DNA from: a virus
Length of the DNA: 45,543 nt
Virus record (IMG/VR): IMGVR_UViG_3300033064_001947
Location: 1 to 45,543 of that record
Direction: 5' to 3' (one strand)
Shown here piece by piece: positions 23,088-29,785 of this stretch. The notes beneath the pieces are model-generated. The model was given only the letters and a program-made list of their open reading frames with translations. It did not search any database and was not told where the DNA came from. Numbering within the stretch: the first letter of the stretch is position 1; the number at the start of each line of letters is the position of its first letter. Made by a program: the position numbers and the translations under genes.

Positions 23088-26018
23088 TTAAGACTTCTCA
23101 GACGAGGAAATTTCACTTAAATACTCCTCGACTACATCATTTGCCTCAGTTATCAATTTTTTATCTTCCTTTGAAGTAAATTTAATCATTGAATTTTTTA
23201 AATTAGCATAATGTGCTAATGCTAATGATTTTCCATACTTTCTATTACCACTAGCTGCTTTTTTCATATCATGAGCACCGACCGGATCTCGGCCTCGCGC
23301 CGAACCATCTTTTCCAAAATGATTAGCTTCTTCTGGACGTCCTGCTCCAACGCCTTCTTCACTATCATCATCCATCGTACCGGGTGTTCCTATCGCCTCA
23401 TGAGATTTTACAGGATCATTACCTTCCTGTTGAATTTGTTCGTATCTAAATGTACGTTTTTTATCTTGAATTACACCAAGTCTCGCTCGTTGCTTTTCAT
23501 CTTCAGTGAATTTGAATACATTTTCATATATCCAATCACTATCTACTAAATCACTATCCTTTAAACTATTTGCAAAATCAATTCGTGCGTTCCATTTTTC
23601 AAGTTGCTCTTGTTCATAAATAATTGATGGATTAGTAAGTGCTAATTCAAAATTAAGTAAATCTTTTTCTTCAAATCCTTGAGCTACTAAATGTACAATT
23701 GCAATTTTAGTTAATTCAGAAACTAGTGTTCGTTGAATACGTTCAATCGTTCGGCCAAACCGAACATCTTCTGCGGCAAGCGTTGCTTTACTATTATGAA
23801 TTATTACTCCGGCCGCAGTAGCAAAATTATGATATTTTTTAATAGTTAAATCACATGTATCTTTAGTTTCCGTTAAAAATTCAATTGATCGCACTACATG
23901 ATTTAAATATTGTTTTTCATACTGTCTGTAATTTTGCATAAAATGTTTATTCTGTAATGCTAATGGCATATTATTAAAAATAAAATCAACCTTATCAATG
24001 GTGTTATATTCAAAGATTCTGTTTAAAGTATTTCTATCAATATTACCTAGTTTACATTCCAATTCTTTCAATGAACTACAATCTTTTGCAACATTCTTCA
24101 ATACATCAACTTCAACTATAAATTTAGTATTATATCGTCGTTTCCCGACAAAATATTTAGTTGAACAATCTATTGAGCAGCACTGTTGATTTTTAACATG
24201 TGGTTCAGTATAAAATTCATCTCCACATTCTACACATAATTTAAATTTACCAAGTAATTTCCCTTTATTCCATGGAACATGTGTACGTGCATACTCAGCT
24301 AATTTATCAACCGATTTCAATCCTCCCTTTCTACCTGCGATTACAAAATGATTAGATTCTTTTTGGGATTTTACCCGTTTAGCAATATTCTCTGGTGAAT
24401 TTAAAGTTTCTGCAATTAATTTCCCATGATAATCACGATGTTCCCAAAAAGTCATAGAACAATCAAAATTCTCTGGATTATTATTTTTCTTATTGAAATC
24501 GGTGTGATGTACAACCCTACCACTTCCTTGGTATATCATATCATAATATTCAGCTACCATTCTATGTGTAGATTGATACTGTTCAATACCTGGATGATAT
24601 ATAGTAGTATATCCCAATCTATCCTCATCTAAATATAATGGCATTAAAGATTGACTTTCTTGTAAATTTTGGGCTTCAATCCAACTACCGTCACGCATCA
24701 AAAACTTATGATTTGGCGTGCAATCAATAAATTTATCATTATCCAAATTAACCCGAACTAAATTAGCATTTCTACTAGTAAATCCTGCCCACTCAATTTC
24801 ACCAGGGACCATCTTATTATTATCGGTATTCAATGTATATGTATAATGTGTAATACCATTTTCATAATCATCAATAATCTCTTGAACTGTTTTCGTTTCC
24901 CCATTTAATAATGGTATTTTAGTTTCTGGAACAACACATCCAAGCCCTTCTTCATATCCTAAGAATGCTTTCGGAATAACTAGAGCGGCCATCATTCTAT
25001 TTTTCAAATATTCAATATCTTCTATTGCATCATATTGAAGACCACTTAAAGTTTCAATTTCAGTACCACTATCTCCTCCACGAACCGGTAAAAAGAAATC
25101 TTCTGTGATATTTTGCATATTATATTTAAGATTATATTCACCCTGTTCATTCATTACTGGTGCTTTCTTCATCTTATCAATAATACGTTTCATATATGGC
25201 TCAACTTCAGCTGGAGCTATATTTCCAATATCAATTTTAAATATTCTACGTTCTGGTGCTCTCATAATACGTTGAATTAACATTGCATCTTCCATCAATA
25301 CCACTTGTTTCCAAGTTTTACGCGCACCTTCAATCATGCTTTTACCATATGGCATAAAATTAGAATCACTATTTAATCTAAAATGAGCAATTTCATATTC
25401 TTCATATGTCTGTTTTCTATATTGTCGCTGAGTATGACGATTATCACCACCAGCAATTTCAAATCCAACTTCATCTGGATTTTCTGGATCTTCTCCTTCA
25501 ACACGTACAACATCATATGCTGAAATAGGTATTGTATTTGTAATACCAAATTTTTCCATAATATTCAAATACAAATAAAAATCGCCATATTTACACATAT
25601 TGCGTGTCCATGGCCATAAATTAAATTCTATATTCAATACATCATAAAATAGATTGTGTAAAATATCTCGAATATTATCCGACTCTGAATAAATTTCAAG
25701 TACATTACCATAATCAGATTTCATAGTTGATTCATCTGCATAAATATTTAACGCTGAAGATATAATTGAATCAGCATCCATTGTTTCATAATCTTTAAAT
25801 AAAGCTAGCCGTTGTGCGGCCATAAAAAGTTGCTGGGCTCGACCTGTTCCACCCGCCATTGATGAATATAATTTAGTATATCTGTCTACAAATCCCTGAC
25901 GCACAGCCGATTGAATCTGATTCGGATCAGCTATTTTAAGTTTTCCACCGCCTTGATTTGTTATTATAATATTTGTTGAGAATAATTTTCTTAATCTCGA
26001 CCTTAATGTATCTGCCAT
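23088..26018 (-). CDS. Portal protein, T4 gp20 type, interrupted by an intein
   Basis: A 976-residue precursor. The exteins (residues 1-360 and 743-976) make a 594-residue portal protein, the dodecameric ring for DNA packaging and head-tail joining. Recognisable portal segments include RAPERRIFKIDIGN, LPVRGGDSGTEIETLSGLQY and MMAALVIPKAFLGYEEG, and after the intein SKATLAAEDVRFGRTIERIQ. The C-terminal tail has ITE before alanine, a possible maturation site. The intein lies in the most conserved part of the protein, as is usual. Confidence 0.93.
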   Translation of the reverse strand: MADTLRSRLRKLFSTNIIITNQGGGKLKIADPNQIQSAVRQGFVDRYTKLYSSMAGGTGRAQQLFMAAQRLALFKDYETMDADSIISSALNIYADESTMKSDYGNVLEIYSESDNIRDILHNLFYDVLNIEFNLWPWTRNMCKYGDFYLYLNIMEKFGITNTIPISAYDVVRVEGEDPENPDEVGFEIAGGDNRHTQRQYRKQTYEEYEIAHFRLNSDSNFMPYGKSMIEGARKTWKQVVLMEDAMLIQRIMRAPERRIFKIDIGNIAPAEVEPYMKRIIDKMKKAPVMNEQGEYNLKYNMQNITEDFFLPVRGGDSGTEIETLSGLQYDAIEDIEYLKNRMMAALVIPKAFLGYEEGLGCVVPETKIPLLNGETKTVQEIIDDYENGITHYTYTLNTDNNKMVPGEIEWAGFTSRNANLVRVNLDNDKFIDCTPNHKFLMRDGSWIEAQNLQESQSLMPLYLDEDRLGYTTIYHPGIEQYQSTHRMVAEYYDMIYQGSGRVVHHTDFNKKNNNPENFDCSMTFWEHRDYHGKLIAETLNSPENIAKRVKSQKESNHFVIAGRKGGLKSVDKLAEYARTHVPWNKGKLLGKFKLCVECGDEFYTEPHVKNQQCCSIDCSTKYFVGKRRYNTKFIVEVDVLKNVAKDCSSLKELECKLGNIDRNTLNRIFEYNTIDKVDFIFNNMPLALQNKHFMQNYRQYEKQYLNHVVRSIEFLTETKDTCDLTIKKYHNFATAAGVIIHNSKATLAAEDVRFGRTIERIQRTLVSELTKIAIVHLVAQGFEEKDLLNFELALTNPSIIYEQEQLEKWNARIDFANSLKDSDLVDSDWIYENVFKFTEDEKQRARLGVIQDKKRTFRYEQIQQEGNDPVKSHEAIGTPGTMDDDSEEGVGAGRPEEANHFGKDGSARGRDPVGAHDMKKAASGNRKYGKSLALAHYANLKNSMIKFTSKEDKKLITEANDVVEEYLSEISSSEKS
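23793..24938 (-). mobile_element. Portal intein with HNH endonuclease
   Basis: A 382-residue intein (residues 361-742 of the precursor). It starts at Cys361 (CVVPETKIPL), has the TxxH block (TPNHKF, 434-439), and ends DLTIKKYHNFATAAGVIIHN before extein Ser743. All splicing residues (Cys1, TxxH, penultimate His, Asn, +1 Ser) are present. The middle carries an HNH-type region (VVHHTDFNKKNNNPENF then EHRDYH) and a cysteine cluster (CVEC ... CC ... C), so both splicing and homing may be active. Confidence 0.92.
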
Positions 26019-26031
26019 TTTTACCTCTTAT

Positions 26032-27198
26032 TTAATCTATTAACCATGTTAAACTTTCTTTTCCGTGTACAGTATCCCATTCCCACGAATCATTTTTATT
26101 TACCTCTGCTGAGGTATATACGCCTGTACCAAGCATTTTGTCTAACGTTTTCTTTTGTAATGCAATCCCTTCGGCACGTAATCGCAACGCAGTATCACGT
26201 ATCCATAAACCAATTGCTAAACTCATAACCAAATCATCATTATAATTTTCCATTGCTTCTGCTCTATCACCTTTATAAACAAATGTAAACAATTCATCTA
26301 ATAATCGTTTGGAATGAACAATTATCGTTTCTTCCCGGAAAAATTCTTCTAATTTTGCCACCAATAATGGCCGAGTTTTTGATGTTGTACTAAATCCAGG
26401 AATCATCTTTCGTTCTTCACGATTGATTTTATTACTTAATTGATGATACACATCTACATATTTTAAATCTTTACTTGTATAAAATAAATTTGGATATTCC
26501 CGATCAATTACTTGTTGAATTGCGGCCCAACCAATATTATTATTTTCAATAATTAATAATGCATCATTATATTCTTTTGCAATATTAACACATAAATTAC
26601 CAAAATCTTTCGTTGATATTAATCCTCTATATTCAGCAACCTGTTCTAAATTTTCGACATCAATTACATGAAATGCTGAATAATCTCGGGCATCACCTCG
26701 TGAGACATCTGCTGCTACTATATATGTTTTATCAGATTTATAAACTGGTTGTTTCCATATCCATAAATTCCCATCCATATGTCTACGTTCTATAGGATCT
26801 TCCTGATAGTCATCACGGTATTTCTGTAAAATTAATGCATCAATTACTGTACGACCTGACTTTAAGAAATCACAATTATGAGATACAATATTATCTACAA
26901 TAAAAATATTATCATCTGCAACATCAATAATATCAAATAATTCAATATTATCATTAATTAATTCTATATTATCAACCCAAACATCACTCTCTGAATCTAT
27001 GTTGGTTCCTCGTTTTAATTCATTTGCTAATATTGGAATTCCATCTAAAATAAATGGATGATCAACCGAACATCGTATATGCTTTCCTGTATTTAAAGTT
27101 ATGGCAATATATTGTAATTTATTAGTTTTTCTAATACCTTTAAATGGTTTATATCCACTTGGCGTTAATATTTCATATTTGTTGTTTTCTAAATACAT
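26032..27198 (-). CDS. Terminase large subunit, C-terminal part with C-intein
   Basis: A 388-residue precursor. Residues 1-108 are the C-terminal half of a split intein. From Cys109 (CDFLKSGRTVIDALILQKY) the gp17-type terminase continues with its RNase H-like nuclease: AADVSRGDARDYSAFHVID (Asp164), LLIIENNN, and DDLVMSLAIG near the end. Joined to residues 1-252 of the other part it gives a 532-residue terminase with sequence QECE-CDFLKSG across the splice, the normal uninterrupted order for this family. The ATG at 27198 directly follows the probable ancestral stop of the endonuclease gene. Confidence 0.93.
   Translation of the reverse strand: MYLENNKYEILTPSGYKPFKGIRKTNKLQYIAITLNTGKHIRCSVDHPFILDGIPILANELKRGTNIDSESDVWVDNIELINDNIELFDIIDVADDNIFIVDNIVSHNCDFLKSGRTVIDALILQKYRDDYQEDPIERRHMDGNLWIWKQPVYKSDKTYIVAADVSRGDARDYSAFHVIDVENLEQVAEYRGLISTKDFGNLCVNIAKEYNDALLIIENNNIGWAAIQQVIDREYPNLFYTSKDLKYVDVYHQLSNKINREERKMIPGFSTTSKTRPLLVAKLEEFFREETIIVHSKRLLDELFTFVYKGDRAEAMENYNDDLVMSLAIGLWIRDTALRLRAEGIALQKKTLDKMLGTGVYTSAEVNKNDSWEWDTVHGKESLTWLID
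26875..27198 (-). mobile_element. C-part of the atypical split TerL intein
   Basis: A 108-residue segment beginning MYLENNKYEILTPSGYKPFK. It has the TxxH-like block as CSVDHPF and ends FIVDNIVSHN before Cys109. Length, start (ILTPSG) and layout resemble the C-part of the AceL-TerL intein, which is also in a phage terminase gene. Confidence 0.9.
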
Positions 27199-27225
27199 TT
27201 ATATTCTCATTCTAATAAATTCACA

Positions 27226-28071
27226 TCACAAAAAGTTTTCAATTTCTTGTTGCCTAATTACATCCTTTTTCTTTAATATATCATCAACATTAAAATGATG
27301 TTTTTCATCAATTTCTATCACTACATTTTTTTCTTTATCATACCCATCTACAAAATAACCAAGTTTTTTAATATGATACTCTCCGCCGTTTTCTGCGTGT
27401 TTGAAGTTATATCCGTGTTTTTTGCCATATTCTTCTATTAAAGGAATTGAATTTATATTATATCGTGGATAACAATTCCCTGCAGCCGACTCTATATATT
27501 CAATTGTGCTTATTCTCATTTTTTGTTTAGTTTCCAAAGTATGTGACTTATTTAATTGGGTGCGTTTTGGAGCTGGACAATAACGGCAATATTTTCCAAA
27601 TGTATATTTTTTACCACATGCACATTTTAATTTAGCAACATCATAATTATATTCTACAATAAATATTAATTTCTCTGTTAATGTTAATTTTCTATTAAAT
27701 AACGCAGTTAAACTTTGCGTATGTTTATTAATAGACCCATATAATTTTATATCATCTTTAATTAAAGTTCTATATTTTGTTTTACCAATATAAGTTTTCC
27801 AGCTTGTTAAAAGTAAATTTCTCGTATCATACTTTGTATAAAATTCTACCATTAACTCTAACAAACGATTAACCTTTTGATAACTTTTCTTTATTTGTTT
27901 GGAAGTATTTTTTCGTTTTATATTTAATTTTTGTGGGGCAGTGAATCCATCCTGCACTTTTAAATGTGTGCCATACATAATTCTATATTCATTTGTTGTA
28001 AGATTATGCTGCGCCTTTAAATGTTGAAACAATTGTTTAGCTGTATAATTACATAATTTACATTTTAACAT
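27226..28071 (-). mobile_element. Vsr/EDxHD homing endonuclease between the terminase halves, truncated by TGA
   Basis: A 281-residue protein. Residues 4-30 are a MucR/Ros-like zinc finger (CKLCNYTAKQLFQHLKAQH); a second cysteine group CACG...CRYC lies near 165. The C-terminal nuclease has GGEYHIKKLGYFVDGYD, then VVIEIDEKHH, the EDxHD/Vsr pattern. A TGA at 27226-27228 cuts it after ENFL; the frame then continues CEFIRMRI to a TAA at 27199-27201. The relative at 28916 reads FLGCEFIRIKI here, so one base change (GGA to TGA) has removed the last nine residues. Confidence 0.88.
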
Positions 28072-28919
28072 TGTAATTCCTCATATAATTCAGTAAACGA
28101 TTTGTTAACAATTTCGCCCGATATTTTATTCCGTACCGTAATAATTGATTTACCCCATAAACATTCACATTCCTGATTAGCTAAATCTGCGCCTAATAAT
28201 TGTGTTTGGTTATCACGCCATTCTTGATCACGGTCTGGATGTACAGTCCAATGTAATATAATTGGGAAAAACTTGCCTGTTCTATCCTCTGCATGTACCC
28301 AATTTTCATGGAACCAACCACCAACACCATTTGGAGTTGAAATAGCAATACATGCTCCACCAGTTGCAAGTGTTAATGAGGCTGCCGCCCATATTTTATC
28401 AATTTTAGGAATAAACGCCGCTTCATCTAAGATCAATAATGATAATGCTTCCGTACGACCGGCTTCTTCATTACTTGCAATTGCTTTAATCTGTGACCCA
28501 TTTGTGAATCGAAGTCCTAATTTATTATCTTCTACTAATCTAAGTTTTAGCCAAGATGGCAAACTGTCATACATAACTTTAACTTTTAATACTAAATTTT
28601 TAGCGGTTTCCTGTTTAGTTGCAATTACAAGAATATTTTTATCTGCGCCGAACAACATCATATGCAACGCATAGCCAGCAACTAATGTGGAAAGGCCTAA
28701 TTGTCTAGCTTTCAAGACAATAGTAAATTGTCTATCAATAAATTCATCCATTATATCCCGCTGAAAATCATATAATGCAAATGGAATTTTTCCATCAATA
28801 GGATGTTGGATAACCGCATATTTACATAAGAAATATATTGGGTTCATTGCACATTTAGTATATTCTTCTACCAGTACGGCTTTTAATTGTTCTTCTGTTA
28901 TTTGATTTAAGTCAGTCAT
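28065..28919 (-). CDS. Terminase large subunit, N-terminal part with N-intein
   Basis: A 284-residue precursor. It carries the ATPase of gp17-type terminases: Walker A KARQLGLST (residues 70-78), Walker B LLILDE (161-166), and a coupling motif AISTPNG (192-198). Residues 253-284 are the N-terminal part of a split intein. The terminase packages DNA through the portal encoded just downstream. The gene starts in an ATGA overlap with an endonuclease gene and ends overlapping the start of another one. Confidence 0.93.
   Translation of the reverse strand: MTDLNQITEEQLKAVLVEEYTKCAMNPIYFLCKYAVIQHPIDGKIPFALYDFQRDIMDEFIDRQFTIVLKARQLGLSTLVAGYALHMMLFGADKNILVIATKQETAKNLVLKVKVMYDSLPSWLKLRLVEDNKLGLRFTNGSQIKAIASNEEAGRTEALSLLILDEAAFIPKIDKIWAAASLTLATGGACIAISTPNGVGGWFHENWVHAEDRTGKFFPIILHWTVHPDRDQEWRDNQTQLLGADLANQECECLWGKSIITVRNKISGEIVNKSFTELYEELQC
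28068..28163 (-). mobile_element. N-part of the atypical split TerL intein (32 residues)
   Basis: Thirty-two residues, CLWGKSIITVRNKISGEIVN then KSFTELYEELQC, starting at Cys253 of the upstream terminase part. The usual C-L-x-G-x-x-x-I start of inteins is clear. Such a short N-part is characteristic of the atypical class (AceL-TerL has 25 residues). Confidence 0.9.
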
Positions 28920-29785
28920 TTTATTTTAATCCTAATAAATTCACAACCAAGAAATTTTGTAATTTCATGCTGTCTCTGTATATCTTTGTCAATTTGATAT
29001 TTATGATATGGCTCATCAATTTCTATAACAATATTTTTCTCTTTATCATACCCATCTACCCAATAACCTAATTCTTTAACATGATATTCTCCACCATTTT
29101 CTGCATGTTGAAAATTATAATCATGTTTTTTGCCATATTCTTCTATTACTGGAATTGAATTTGGGTTATATGCGGGAAATAATTGACCATGTAAATTTTC
29201 TAACCGTTTTATTTTAGCTAACCTTAATTTTAGTTTAGTTTCATTACTCATCTTAACACCAAGTTTGGGGCCAGGTTTACCATACATAGGATTATTTTTT
29301 CCTGTTCTATCTGACATATTTTTACTTATTTTTCTTCTGGTTTCTAATGAACGTGTTTTTCCAAGTTGAGCTTTTCTCATCTTCAATTTTGTTTCTTCTG
29401 AGAATGGCCGTCTTGTTTTGCCAATCTGAGCATCATGCATCTTTTGTTTTGTTTCTTTTGAAAACGGTTTTCCTAACCAATATTTTGCACTATTTTGTTT
29501 CATTTTTAATTTAGAAGCTTCAGTATGCGTTCTACCATAATTTGGATTATCCTTTCCCGTCTTTCCATACATAGGATTATTTTTTCCGCTCATATTAGGT
29601 CGATTTTCCTTTATTTTTAATATGGTTTCTACAGAATGAGATTTACCATAAAATCCATTATTCTTTCCCATTTTAGAACAAGAACGACATTTAGCATTAC
29701 GTTTTTCTGCACTTTTCATAGTTCGTTTATTTTTATAATGTATCTCAACACCACAATCTATACAGCCTCTAATAAATAATATCAT
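28916..29785 (-). mobile_element. EDxHD homing endonuclease gene upstream of terminase
   Basis: A 289-residue free-standing endonuclease. An N-terminal CxxC...CRSC zinc motif is followed by at least five NUMOD3-type repeats (GKNNPMYGKTGKDNPNYGR and similar) and the EDxHD/Vsr nuclease (NGGEYHVKELGYWVDGYDKE then IVIEIDEPYH). Unlike its relative at 27226 it is complete at the C-terminus. Both ends overlap neighbours by four bases, so it is placed beside the terminase gene without disrupting it. Confidence 0.88.

What the first reader, a model, noticed from the sequence alone, without database searches (positions are those of the whole stretch)
26032..28919. Fractured terminase gene: atypical split intein with an endonuclease gene in the gap
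The upstream part ends in a 32-residue intein start (CLWGKSII...), the downstream part begins with a 108-residue intein end (...IVSHN) before CDFLKSGRTV. The exteins rejoin to QECE-CDFLKSG, the continuous family sequence. An EDxHD/Vsr endonuclease gene fills the gap with overlapping or abutting ends. This matches the fractured-gene layout known from metagenomes, and the short N-part resembles the AceL-TerL split intein, also in a terminase. A new natural split intein with such a short N-part has mechanistic and practical interest.
Basis: partly seen in the sequence, partly recalled or inferred. Interest (0 to 1): 0.85.

Follow-up and report, generated by a model that had tools for sequence, protein, structure and literature searches.

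The report
Split-intein phage terminase with gap endonuclease
A phage's DNA-packaging motor gene is broken in two, and each half carries part of a self-splicing 'intein' that should rejoin the two proteins, with a homing-endonuclease gene in the break; this is a clear new example of a known but uncommon arrangement, and its relatives show how the intein can shift position by two codons and how the endonuclease decays.

Summary
TerL-N (252 aa) is fused to a 32-aa IntN at 28919-28065. An endonuclease ORF lies in the gap (28071-27226). A 108-aa IntC is fused to TerL-C at 27198-26032. IntC's best intein match, by sequence (E 2e-14) and by fold (Z 12.0), is Cat, the consensus of AceL-TerL and GOS-TerL. 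Protein trans-splicing is by far the likeliest mechanism, though no splicing could be tested.

This is a new member of a known kind. At least four other viral-contig lineages share this intein at the same hinge. Cultured Vibrio, Aeromonas, Providencia and Serratia phages carry related split inteins there, and E. coli/Yersinia T4-like phages carry one at the Walker B site.

New details:
(i) All 77 uninterrupted homologues with a readable site read QE-C-x-C-x-F. The window's intein precedes the second Cys, its four close relatives' the first: a 6-bp register shift within one lineage.
(ii) The window's endonuclease carries a TGA that removes its predicted last core strand, and in L005 the gene is reduced to 37 codons, yet the split persists.
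(iii) L095-L098 have TerL in three pieces, with two split inteins and two endonucleases.

EDxHD/Vsr assignment of the nuclease is suggestive only.

The parts
28164..28919 (-). TerL N-extein (ATPase domain), 252 aa, ending ...ANQECE
   Evidence: ORF; Pfam Terminase_6N E 1e-11, PHROG TerL E 1.5e-42; 252/253 junction located
28068..28163 (-). IntN, 32 aa: CLWGKSIITVRNKISGEIVNKSFTELYEELQC, with Cys1; stop codon at 28067-28065
   Evidence: Same ORF; 43-50% identical to IntN of L002/L003/L005 at the same place
28077..28082 (-). Shine-Dalgarno-like GAGGAA inside the last codons of IntN, 5 nt before the endonuclease ATG
   Evidence: Upstream sequences printed; position counted from the sequence; function inferred
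27226..28071 (-). Gap endonuclease ORF, 281 aa: N-terminal Ros/MucR-like Cys2His2 finger, helical middle, C-terminal PD-(D/E)XK/Vsr-like nuclease domain; truncated by TGA at 27228-27226
   Evidence: 57-59% identical full length to L002 HEN; ROS_MUCR E 1e-4, below cutoff; model of L002 HEN: Foldseek 3r3p and 1vsr rank 2-3, VIA Z 6.8 (3r3p) and 6.7 (Vsr 1cw0)
27199..27225 (-). Cut-off tail of the endonuclease frame after the TGA: CEFIRMRI then TAA, directly abutting the IntC ATG
   Evidence: Sequence; relatives end LGCDFVRIAT, LNCEFIRIKYESK, LQCKFIRIRI, LGCEFIRIKIK
26875..27198 (-). IntC, 108 aa, MYLENNKYEIL...IVDNIVSHN, with SVDH block B-like motif and penultimate His plus terminal Asn
   Evidence: PDB 6dsl CatC E 2e-14; fold Z 12.0 over 101 aa to 6dsl
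26032..26874 (-). TerL C-extein (nuclease domain), 280 aa from CDFLKSGRTV, plus stop
   Evidence: PHROG terminase hits; T4 gp17 3cpe Z 27.0

Best explanation
The terminase large subunit is made as two polypeptides, TerL-N+IntN (284 aa) and IntC+TerL-C (388 aa). IntN and IntC associate into a HINT-fold intein, excise themselves and ligate E252 of the N-extein to Cys+1 of the C-extein, giving a 532-aa TerL that reads ...QECE-CDFLKSG.... The gap gene descends from the element's homing endonuclease, which would cut uninterrupted terL near its QE-CD-CD-F codons so that IntN-HEN-IntC is copied in by repair. Shown here: both halves, in order, with splice-junction residues, the predicted fold of IntC, the continuous family sequence at the junction, and recurrence of the layout in related contigs. 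Inferred from the family: trans-splicing itself. Inferred: homing, and weakened or lost nuclease activity in this copy because of the TGA. Also inferred: the element slid by one 6-bp repeat unit (TGTGAT TGTGAC) between the register of its relatives (QE|CD) and that of the window (QECE|CD). The D-to-E change in the window keeps Glu at -1 and Cys-Asp at +1/+2 in both registers.
For: ORFs and junctions. IntC matches Cat by sequence (E 2e-14; the joined intein also matches gp41-1 and VidaL more weakly) and by fold (Z 12.0, rmsd 1.9, 101 aligned; Foldseek E 2.7e-7). The C-extein matches T4 gp17 (Z 27.0). Relatives L002/L003, L005, L092-L094 and L095-L098 carry the same split at the same hinge. All 77 uninterrupted homologues with a readable site have Cys at both positions of QE-C-x-C-x-F. 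HEN, IntC and TerL diverge at similar rates between lineages (pN/pS 0.42-0.62 for HEN and IntC, 0.34-0.59 for TerL), as expected if all are kept or move together (synonymous sites near saturation). No intron family was found.
Against: No splicing, expression or homing was or could be tested. No other terL was found in the record, but it may be a fragment of the genome. IntN is short and only 31-44% identical to that of its relatives. The intein tree is poorly resolved at depth. The register shift could also be two independent insertions. No second sequence of the same phage was found to check that the TGA is real.
Confidence: 0.92

Rival explanations
1. Genes in pieces without splicing: the two TerL halves assemble non-covalently (as described for a phage ribonucleotide reductase split by a homing endonuclease gene) and the intein remnants are inert tails.
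For: The break lies near the ATPase-nuclease hinge, so two folded domains are plausible. A functional two-piece nucleotide reductase is known (cited in PMC10448857).
Against: Both tails keep intein sequence and the splice-junction residues (Cys1, H-N at the end of IntC, Cys+1) in every hinge-site relative. IntC has pN/pS of 0.50-0.62 and folds like Cat. Unused tails should decay.
Confidence: 0.04
2. A group I or group II intron, not an intein, joins the halves at the RNA level, with the endonuclease as the intron ORF.
For: Introns with endonuclease genes do interrupt phage terL (ICP1 terL, PMC10448857).
Against: No Rfam match at gathering score in the window, and only a chance snoRNA hit on the other strand at E 0.6 in 25900-29000. 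The flanking codons encode homologous intein halves, and almost no non-coding sequence is left in the gap.
Confidence: 0.01
3. The gap endonuclease is still an active homing nuclease despite the TGA: by readthrough, because the tail is dispensable, or because the TGA is a sequencing error.
For: The rest of the ORF is intact and diverges like a gene under purifying selection (pN/pS 0.42-0.54). The nine missing residues form only the last predicted strand (residues 285-290 of the L002 model). One base separates TGA from a Gly codon.
Against: All three full-length relatives and the upstream paralogue keep the tail. TGA is a normal stop in this phage, ending 12 of the 32 ORFs examined. L005 shows that the element survives loss of the gene.
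Confidence: 0.4
4. The locus is an assembly or pseudogene artefact.
For: One internal TGA in the endonuclease, and another in L005 TerL-C, show that the contigs are not flawless.
Against: The same three-gene layout, with open frames, occurs in several contigs at 45-65% protein identity, and comparable layouts occur in cultured phages.
Confidence: 0.02

Closest known systems
Cat / AceL-TerL / GOS-TerL atypical split inteins (PDB 6dsl; PMC11766414)
   Same: Host protein TerL, short IntN (32 aa here; 30, 25 and 37 there) with long IntC (108 aa here; 104, 104 and 115 there), Cys+1; IntC 36% identical to Cat with the same fold.
   Different: Only ~36% identical to Cat; here the nuclease gene in the gap is visible and the close relatives are known. 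GOS-TerL has Ser1, this one Cys1.
Fractured genes of Dassa et al. 2009 (cited in PMC10448857 and PMC12350094; paper itself not held)
   Same: Gene broken by a split intein with a free-standing endonuclease gene between the halves (layout from memory and the paper's title); the EDxHD/Vsr endonuclease family is attributed to that paper by PMC12350094.
   Different: Endonuclease truncated here; terL of a T4-like phage whose nearest named relatives are Flavobacterium and Microcystis phages.
Cultured phages Providencia PSTRCR_127 and Serratia 92A1 (L101, L109)
   Same: Three overlapping ORFs, TerL-N+IntN / free endonuclease / IntC+TerL-C, at the same hinge.
   Different: The endonuclease looks GIY-YIG (by eye, not scanned), the insertion is one codon upstream (QEH|C), and IntC is only ~31-33% identical.
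Aeromonas PX29 genes 17A/17B and Vibrio VP-1, K469, 1.244.A terL
   Same: Split TerL at the same hinge; PX29 annotated as 'putative N-intein' and 'C-intein'.
   Different: GIY-YIG endonuclease fused to IntC (PX29, annotated) or IntN (Vibrio, by eye) rather than a separate gene.
Coliphage HY03 and Yersinia phage TG1 terL
   Same: Free endonuclease-like ORF between split-intein halves, overlapping ends.
   Different: Split at Walker B (IYIDE|CAFIP in TG1), with an endonuclease that by eye resembles the TnsA-like one of L095.
I-Bth0305I (3r3p) and Vsr (1vsr, 1cw0)
   Same: Predicted nuclease domain of the full-length relative aligns to both (Z 6.8 and 6.7).
   Different: No significant sequence match; other PD-(D/E)XK proteins score as high or higher; different DNA-binding part.

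Membership tests
Atypical TerL split inteins (AceL/GOS/Cat) | Naturally split, short IntN (~25-37 aa) and long IntC (~104-115 aa) | tested here: met
   32 + 108 aa in separate ORFs; lengths from PMC11766414
Atypical TerL split inteins (AceL/GOS/Cat) | Homologous IntC with HINT fold | tested here: met
   6dsl E 2e-14; Z 12.0, 36% identity over 101 aa
Atypical TerL split inteins (AceL/GOS/Cat) | Splicing residues: Cys1 (or Ser1), C-terminal His-Asn, Cys+1 | tested here: met
   CLWGKS......IVSHN, CDFLKSG
Atypical TerL split inteins (AceL/GOS/Cat) | Splices in trans | not testable with these tools
   Needs protein expression
Fractured gene with free homing endonuclease | Separate endonuclease ORF between the intein halves of one host gene | tested here: met
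   28071-27226 between IntN and IntC; same in L002, L092, L095
Fractured gene with free homing endonuclease | Endonuclease cleaves the empty allele | not testable with these tools
   Copy is truncated by TGA relative to relatives
EDxHD/Vsr homing endonucleases | Vsr-like PD-(D/E)XK nuclease core related to I-Bth0305I | tested here: inconclusive
   I-Bth0305I and Vsr are Foldseek ranks 2-3 at E 0.2 and have Z 6.8/6.7, but unrelated PD-(D/E)XK proteins score as high or higher; no sequence match. Conserved E...D...ExDExxH in the close relatives, largely kept in more distant ones
Group I / II intron | Conserved intron RNA structure in the gap | tested here: not met
   No Rfam intron at gathering score or E<1
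T4-type terminase large subunit (gp17) | ATPase and nuclease domains homologous to gp17 | tested here: met
   Pfam/PHROGs; 3cpe Z 27.0

The most novel reading that the evidence does not exclude
One lineage of homing split intein has changed its insertion register by exactly one 6-bp unit of the tandem Cys-Asp repeat in terL (QE-CD-CD-F). Four relatives sit before the first Cys and the window before the second, with a compensating D-to-E change at -1 in the window and loss of the second Cys in the relatives. With the more distant inteins at this hinge, three registers are occupied in all, always directly before a Cys. Inteins would thus be able to slide by microhomology to a nearby acceptable junction rather than being locked to one site.
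Probability: 0.5. Interest if true: 0.6.

Novelty: new member of a known kind. Interest (0 to 1): 0.5.

Why it matters
It adds a natural split intein with Cys1 and a 32-aa N-part, a format useful for attaching short synthetic peptides to proteins. More useful is the comparative series around it. At one hinge of one gene there are empty sites, split inteins with an intact, truncated or nearly deleted endonuclease, GIY-YIG nucleases fused to either half, and a terminase broken into three pieces by two split inteins. That makes testable how split inteins persist once homing is lost, and whether inteins can slide between neighbouring Cys codons.

Tried and rejected
Intron hypothesis: Rfam at gathering score and at E<1 gave nothing relevant. 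Sequence profile of the HENs against the PDB: no match, including to I-Bth0305I. Pfam for the HEN: only a sub-threshold zinc-finger hit. Exact-pattern search for another copy of the HEN end, to decide whether the TGA is real: none. IntC alignment against GTDB genomes: no relative by tblastn. Recoding of TGA in the window considered and rejected: 12 of 32 ORFs examined end in TGA. Dassa et al. 2009 is not held, so that comparison rests on other papers' citations and on memory. The deep order of the intein tree is unresolved and is not used. The gap HEN tail is not a frameshift: it is a single in-frame TGA where relatives have a sense codon.

Full report
What is there. On the minus strand three ORFs follow each other. 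ORF 1 (28919-28065, 284 aa) is the ATPase half of a T4-type terminase large subunit; after 252 residues it continues with CLWGKSIITVRNKISGEIVNKSFTELYEELQC. ORF 2 (28071-27226, 281 aa) starts inside the stop region of ORF 1 (7-nt overlap), preceded by a GAGGAA ribosome-binding motif lying in the last IntN codons. ORF 3 (27198-26032, 388 aa) begins with 108 residues ending IVSHN and continues with CDFLKSGRTV... The two exteins give a 532-aa protein. No other match to the IntC/TerL-C query exists in the record, a 45.5-kb viral contig that may be a fragment.

The intein. IntC matches the solved consensus atypical intein Cat (6dsl) at E 2e-14. The joined intein also matches gp41-1 (E 0.001) and, at a level not significant alone, VidaL. 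The predicted structure of ORF 3 places residues 1-106 on Cat (Z 12.0, rmsd 1.9, 101 aligned, 36% identity) and the C-extein on T4 gp17 (Z 27.0). Cat was built from GOS-TerL and AceL-TerL, whose IntN are 37 and 25 aa (PMC11766414). The intein joined from IntN and IntC also hits the Pfam intein splicing domain, below its cutoff.

Relatives with the same break. L002/L003 (near-identical to each other), L005, L092-L094 and L095-L098 carry the split at the same hinge. The gap-endonuclease relatives in L002, L092 and L095 are 47-59% identical to the window copy full length. HEN, IntC and both TerL parts diverge to similar degrees between lineages, compatible with common descent or joint transfer; synonymous sites are near saturation, so the ratios are only a guide.

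The empty site and the register shift. All 77 uninterrupted homologues whose site could be read have Cys at both positions of QE-C-x-C-x-F; the commonest DNA form is CAAGAGTGTGATTGTGACTTC, a 6-bp tandem repeat. Flavobacterium phage immuto and Microcystis phage Mel-JY01 agree. In the window the intein precedes the second Cys (QECE|CDFLKSG). In L002, L005, L092 and L095 it precedes the first (QE|CDTEF, QE|CDADF, QE|CDTDF, QE|CDADF). In both cases the junction reads E|CD. The window has CE in place of the CD of the empty sites, which makes -1 a Glu. In the relatives the second Cys has become Thr or Ala. A shift by one repeat unit within the lineage is the simplest reading, but independent insertions are not excluded. 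More distant inteins at this hinge use the second-Cys register (Vibrio VP-1, K469, EniLVp02) or the one between (PX29, PSTRCR_127, 92A1) (alignment by eye).

The endonuclease. It has a Cys2His2 Ros/MucR-like finger (Pfam E 1e-4, below cutoff), a helical middle and a C-terminal nuclease domain with a conserved E...D...ExDExxH pattern. The full-length L002 protein was modelled (nuclease domain pLDDT mostly around 80-95). I-Bth0305I and Vsr are Foldseek ranks 2 and 3 at weak E-values, with VIA Z 6.8 and 6.7; three mitochondrial-ribosome chains and other PD-(D/E)XK proteins score as high or higher. So a PD-(D/E)XK/Vsr-type core is likely, and EDxHD membership is unproven. In the window an in-frame TGA replaces a sense codon; the following 27 nt read CEFIRMRI* and end exactly at the IntC ATG. 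The nine missing residues cover the last predicted strand (285-290 of the L002 model). In L005 the gene is cut down to a 37-codon ORF whose stop overlaps the IntC start, and the gap is 104 nt instead of ~865. The split therefore outlasts its endonuclease. Retention of the mini-ORF for translational coupling is my inference.

Related arrangements elsewhere. 57 phage records match IntC, most of them at an annotated terminase gene. PSTRCR_127 and 92A1 have the same three-ORF layout at this hinge. HY03 and TG1 have it at Walker B. PX29 has the endonuclease fused to IntC, Vibrio phages to IntN. EniLVp02 is split with no endonuclease. SRB7757 and VmeM-32 have contiguous inteins at Walker B. L095-L098 have five ORFs: TerL-1+IntN, a TnsA-like endonuclease, IntC+TerL-2+IntN, the window-type endonuclease, and IntC+TerL-3.

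Verdict. It is a new member of a known kind with an informative comparative setting.

Noticed in passing
L095 1476-5882 (also L096, L097, L098): TerL broken into three pieces by two split inteins (Walker B site VVDE|CAFIDN and hinge QE|CDADF), each gap holding a different endonuclease gene (TnsA-like and window-type): a five-ORF terminase.
   Followed up: partly
window 28916-29785 (-): A second endonuclease gene with four NUMOD3 repeats and a C-terminal domain 71% identical to that of the gap endonuclease, ending in an ATGA overlap with the TerL-N start; absent upstream of terL in L002 and L005.
   Followed up: partly
window 23088-26018 (-), intein about residues 368-742: The next gene, T4-type portal, carries a contiguous intein with HNH endonuclease matches; the L002 portal is intein-free at that place (FLGYEDQVGSKSTLAAEDVRF). 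L092's portal has an HNH intein at a different position.
   Followed up: partly
L005 5887-6003: Endonuclease reduced to a 37-codon ORF keeping the zinc-finger part; its stop overlaps the IntC ATG.
   Followed up: yes
L005 6445-6447: TGA in TerL-C where relatives have a Trp codon (LWIW); mutation, error or recoding not decided.
   Followed up: no
L108 1075-3213 (Vibrio phage vB_VmeM-32): Contiguous intein at the Walker B site and an intein C-terminal part just before the Walker A TT in the same TerL ORF, whose N-terminal part lies outside the annotated gene.
   Followed up: no
L103 1008-6281 (Campylobacter phage IBB_35): TerL region spread over several ORFs with at least two intein insertions and an ORF annotated MobE endonuclease.
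   Followed up: no
L107 3447-5573 (Salicola phage SCTP-2): TerL ORF that starts with an IntC and contains a second intein further on; the N-terminal part of TerL is not adjacent in the fetched stretch.
   Followed up: no
L194 3662-5443 (uncultured 484-kb phage LR756508): An intein-containing ORF close downstream of an uninterrupted terL whose site reads RECDCNF; the same phage has a relative of the gap nuclease domain at 295505.
   Followed up: no
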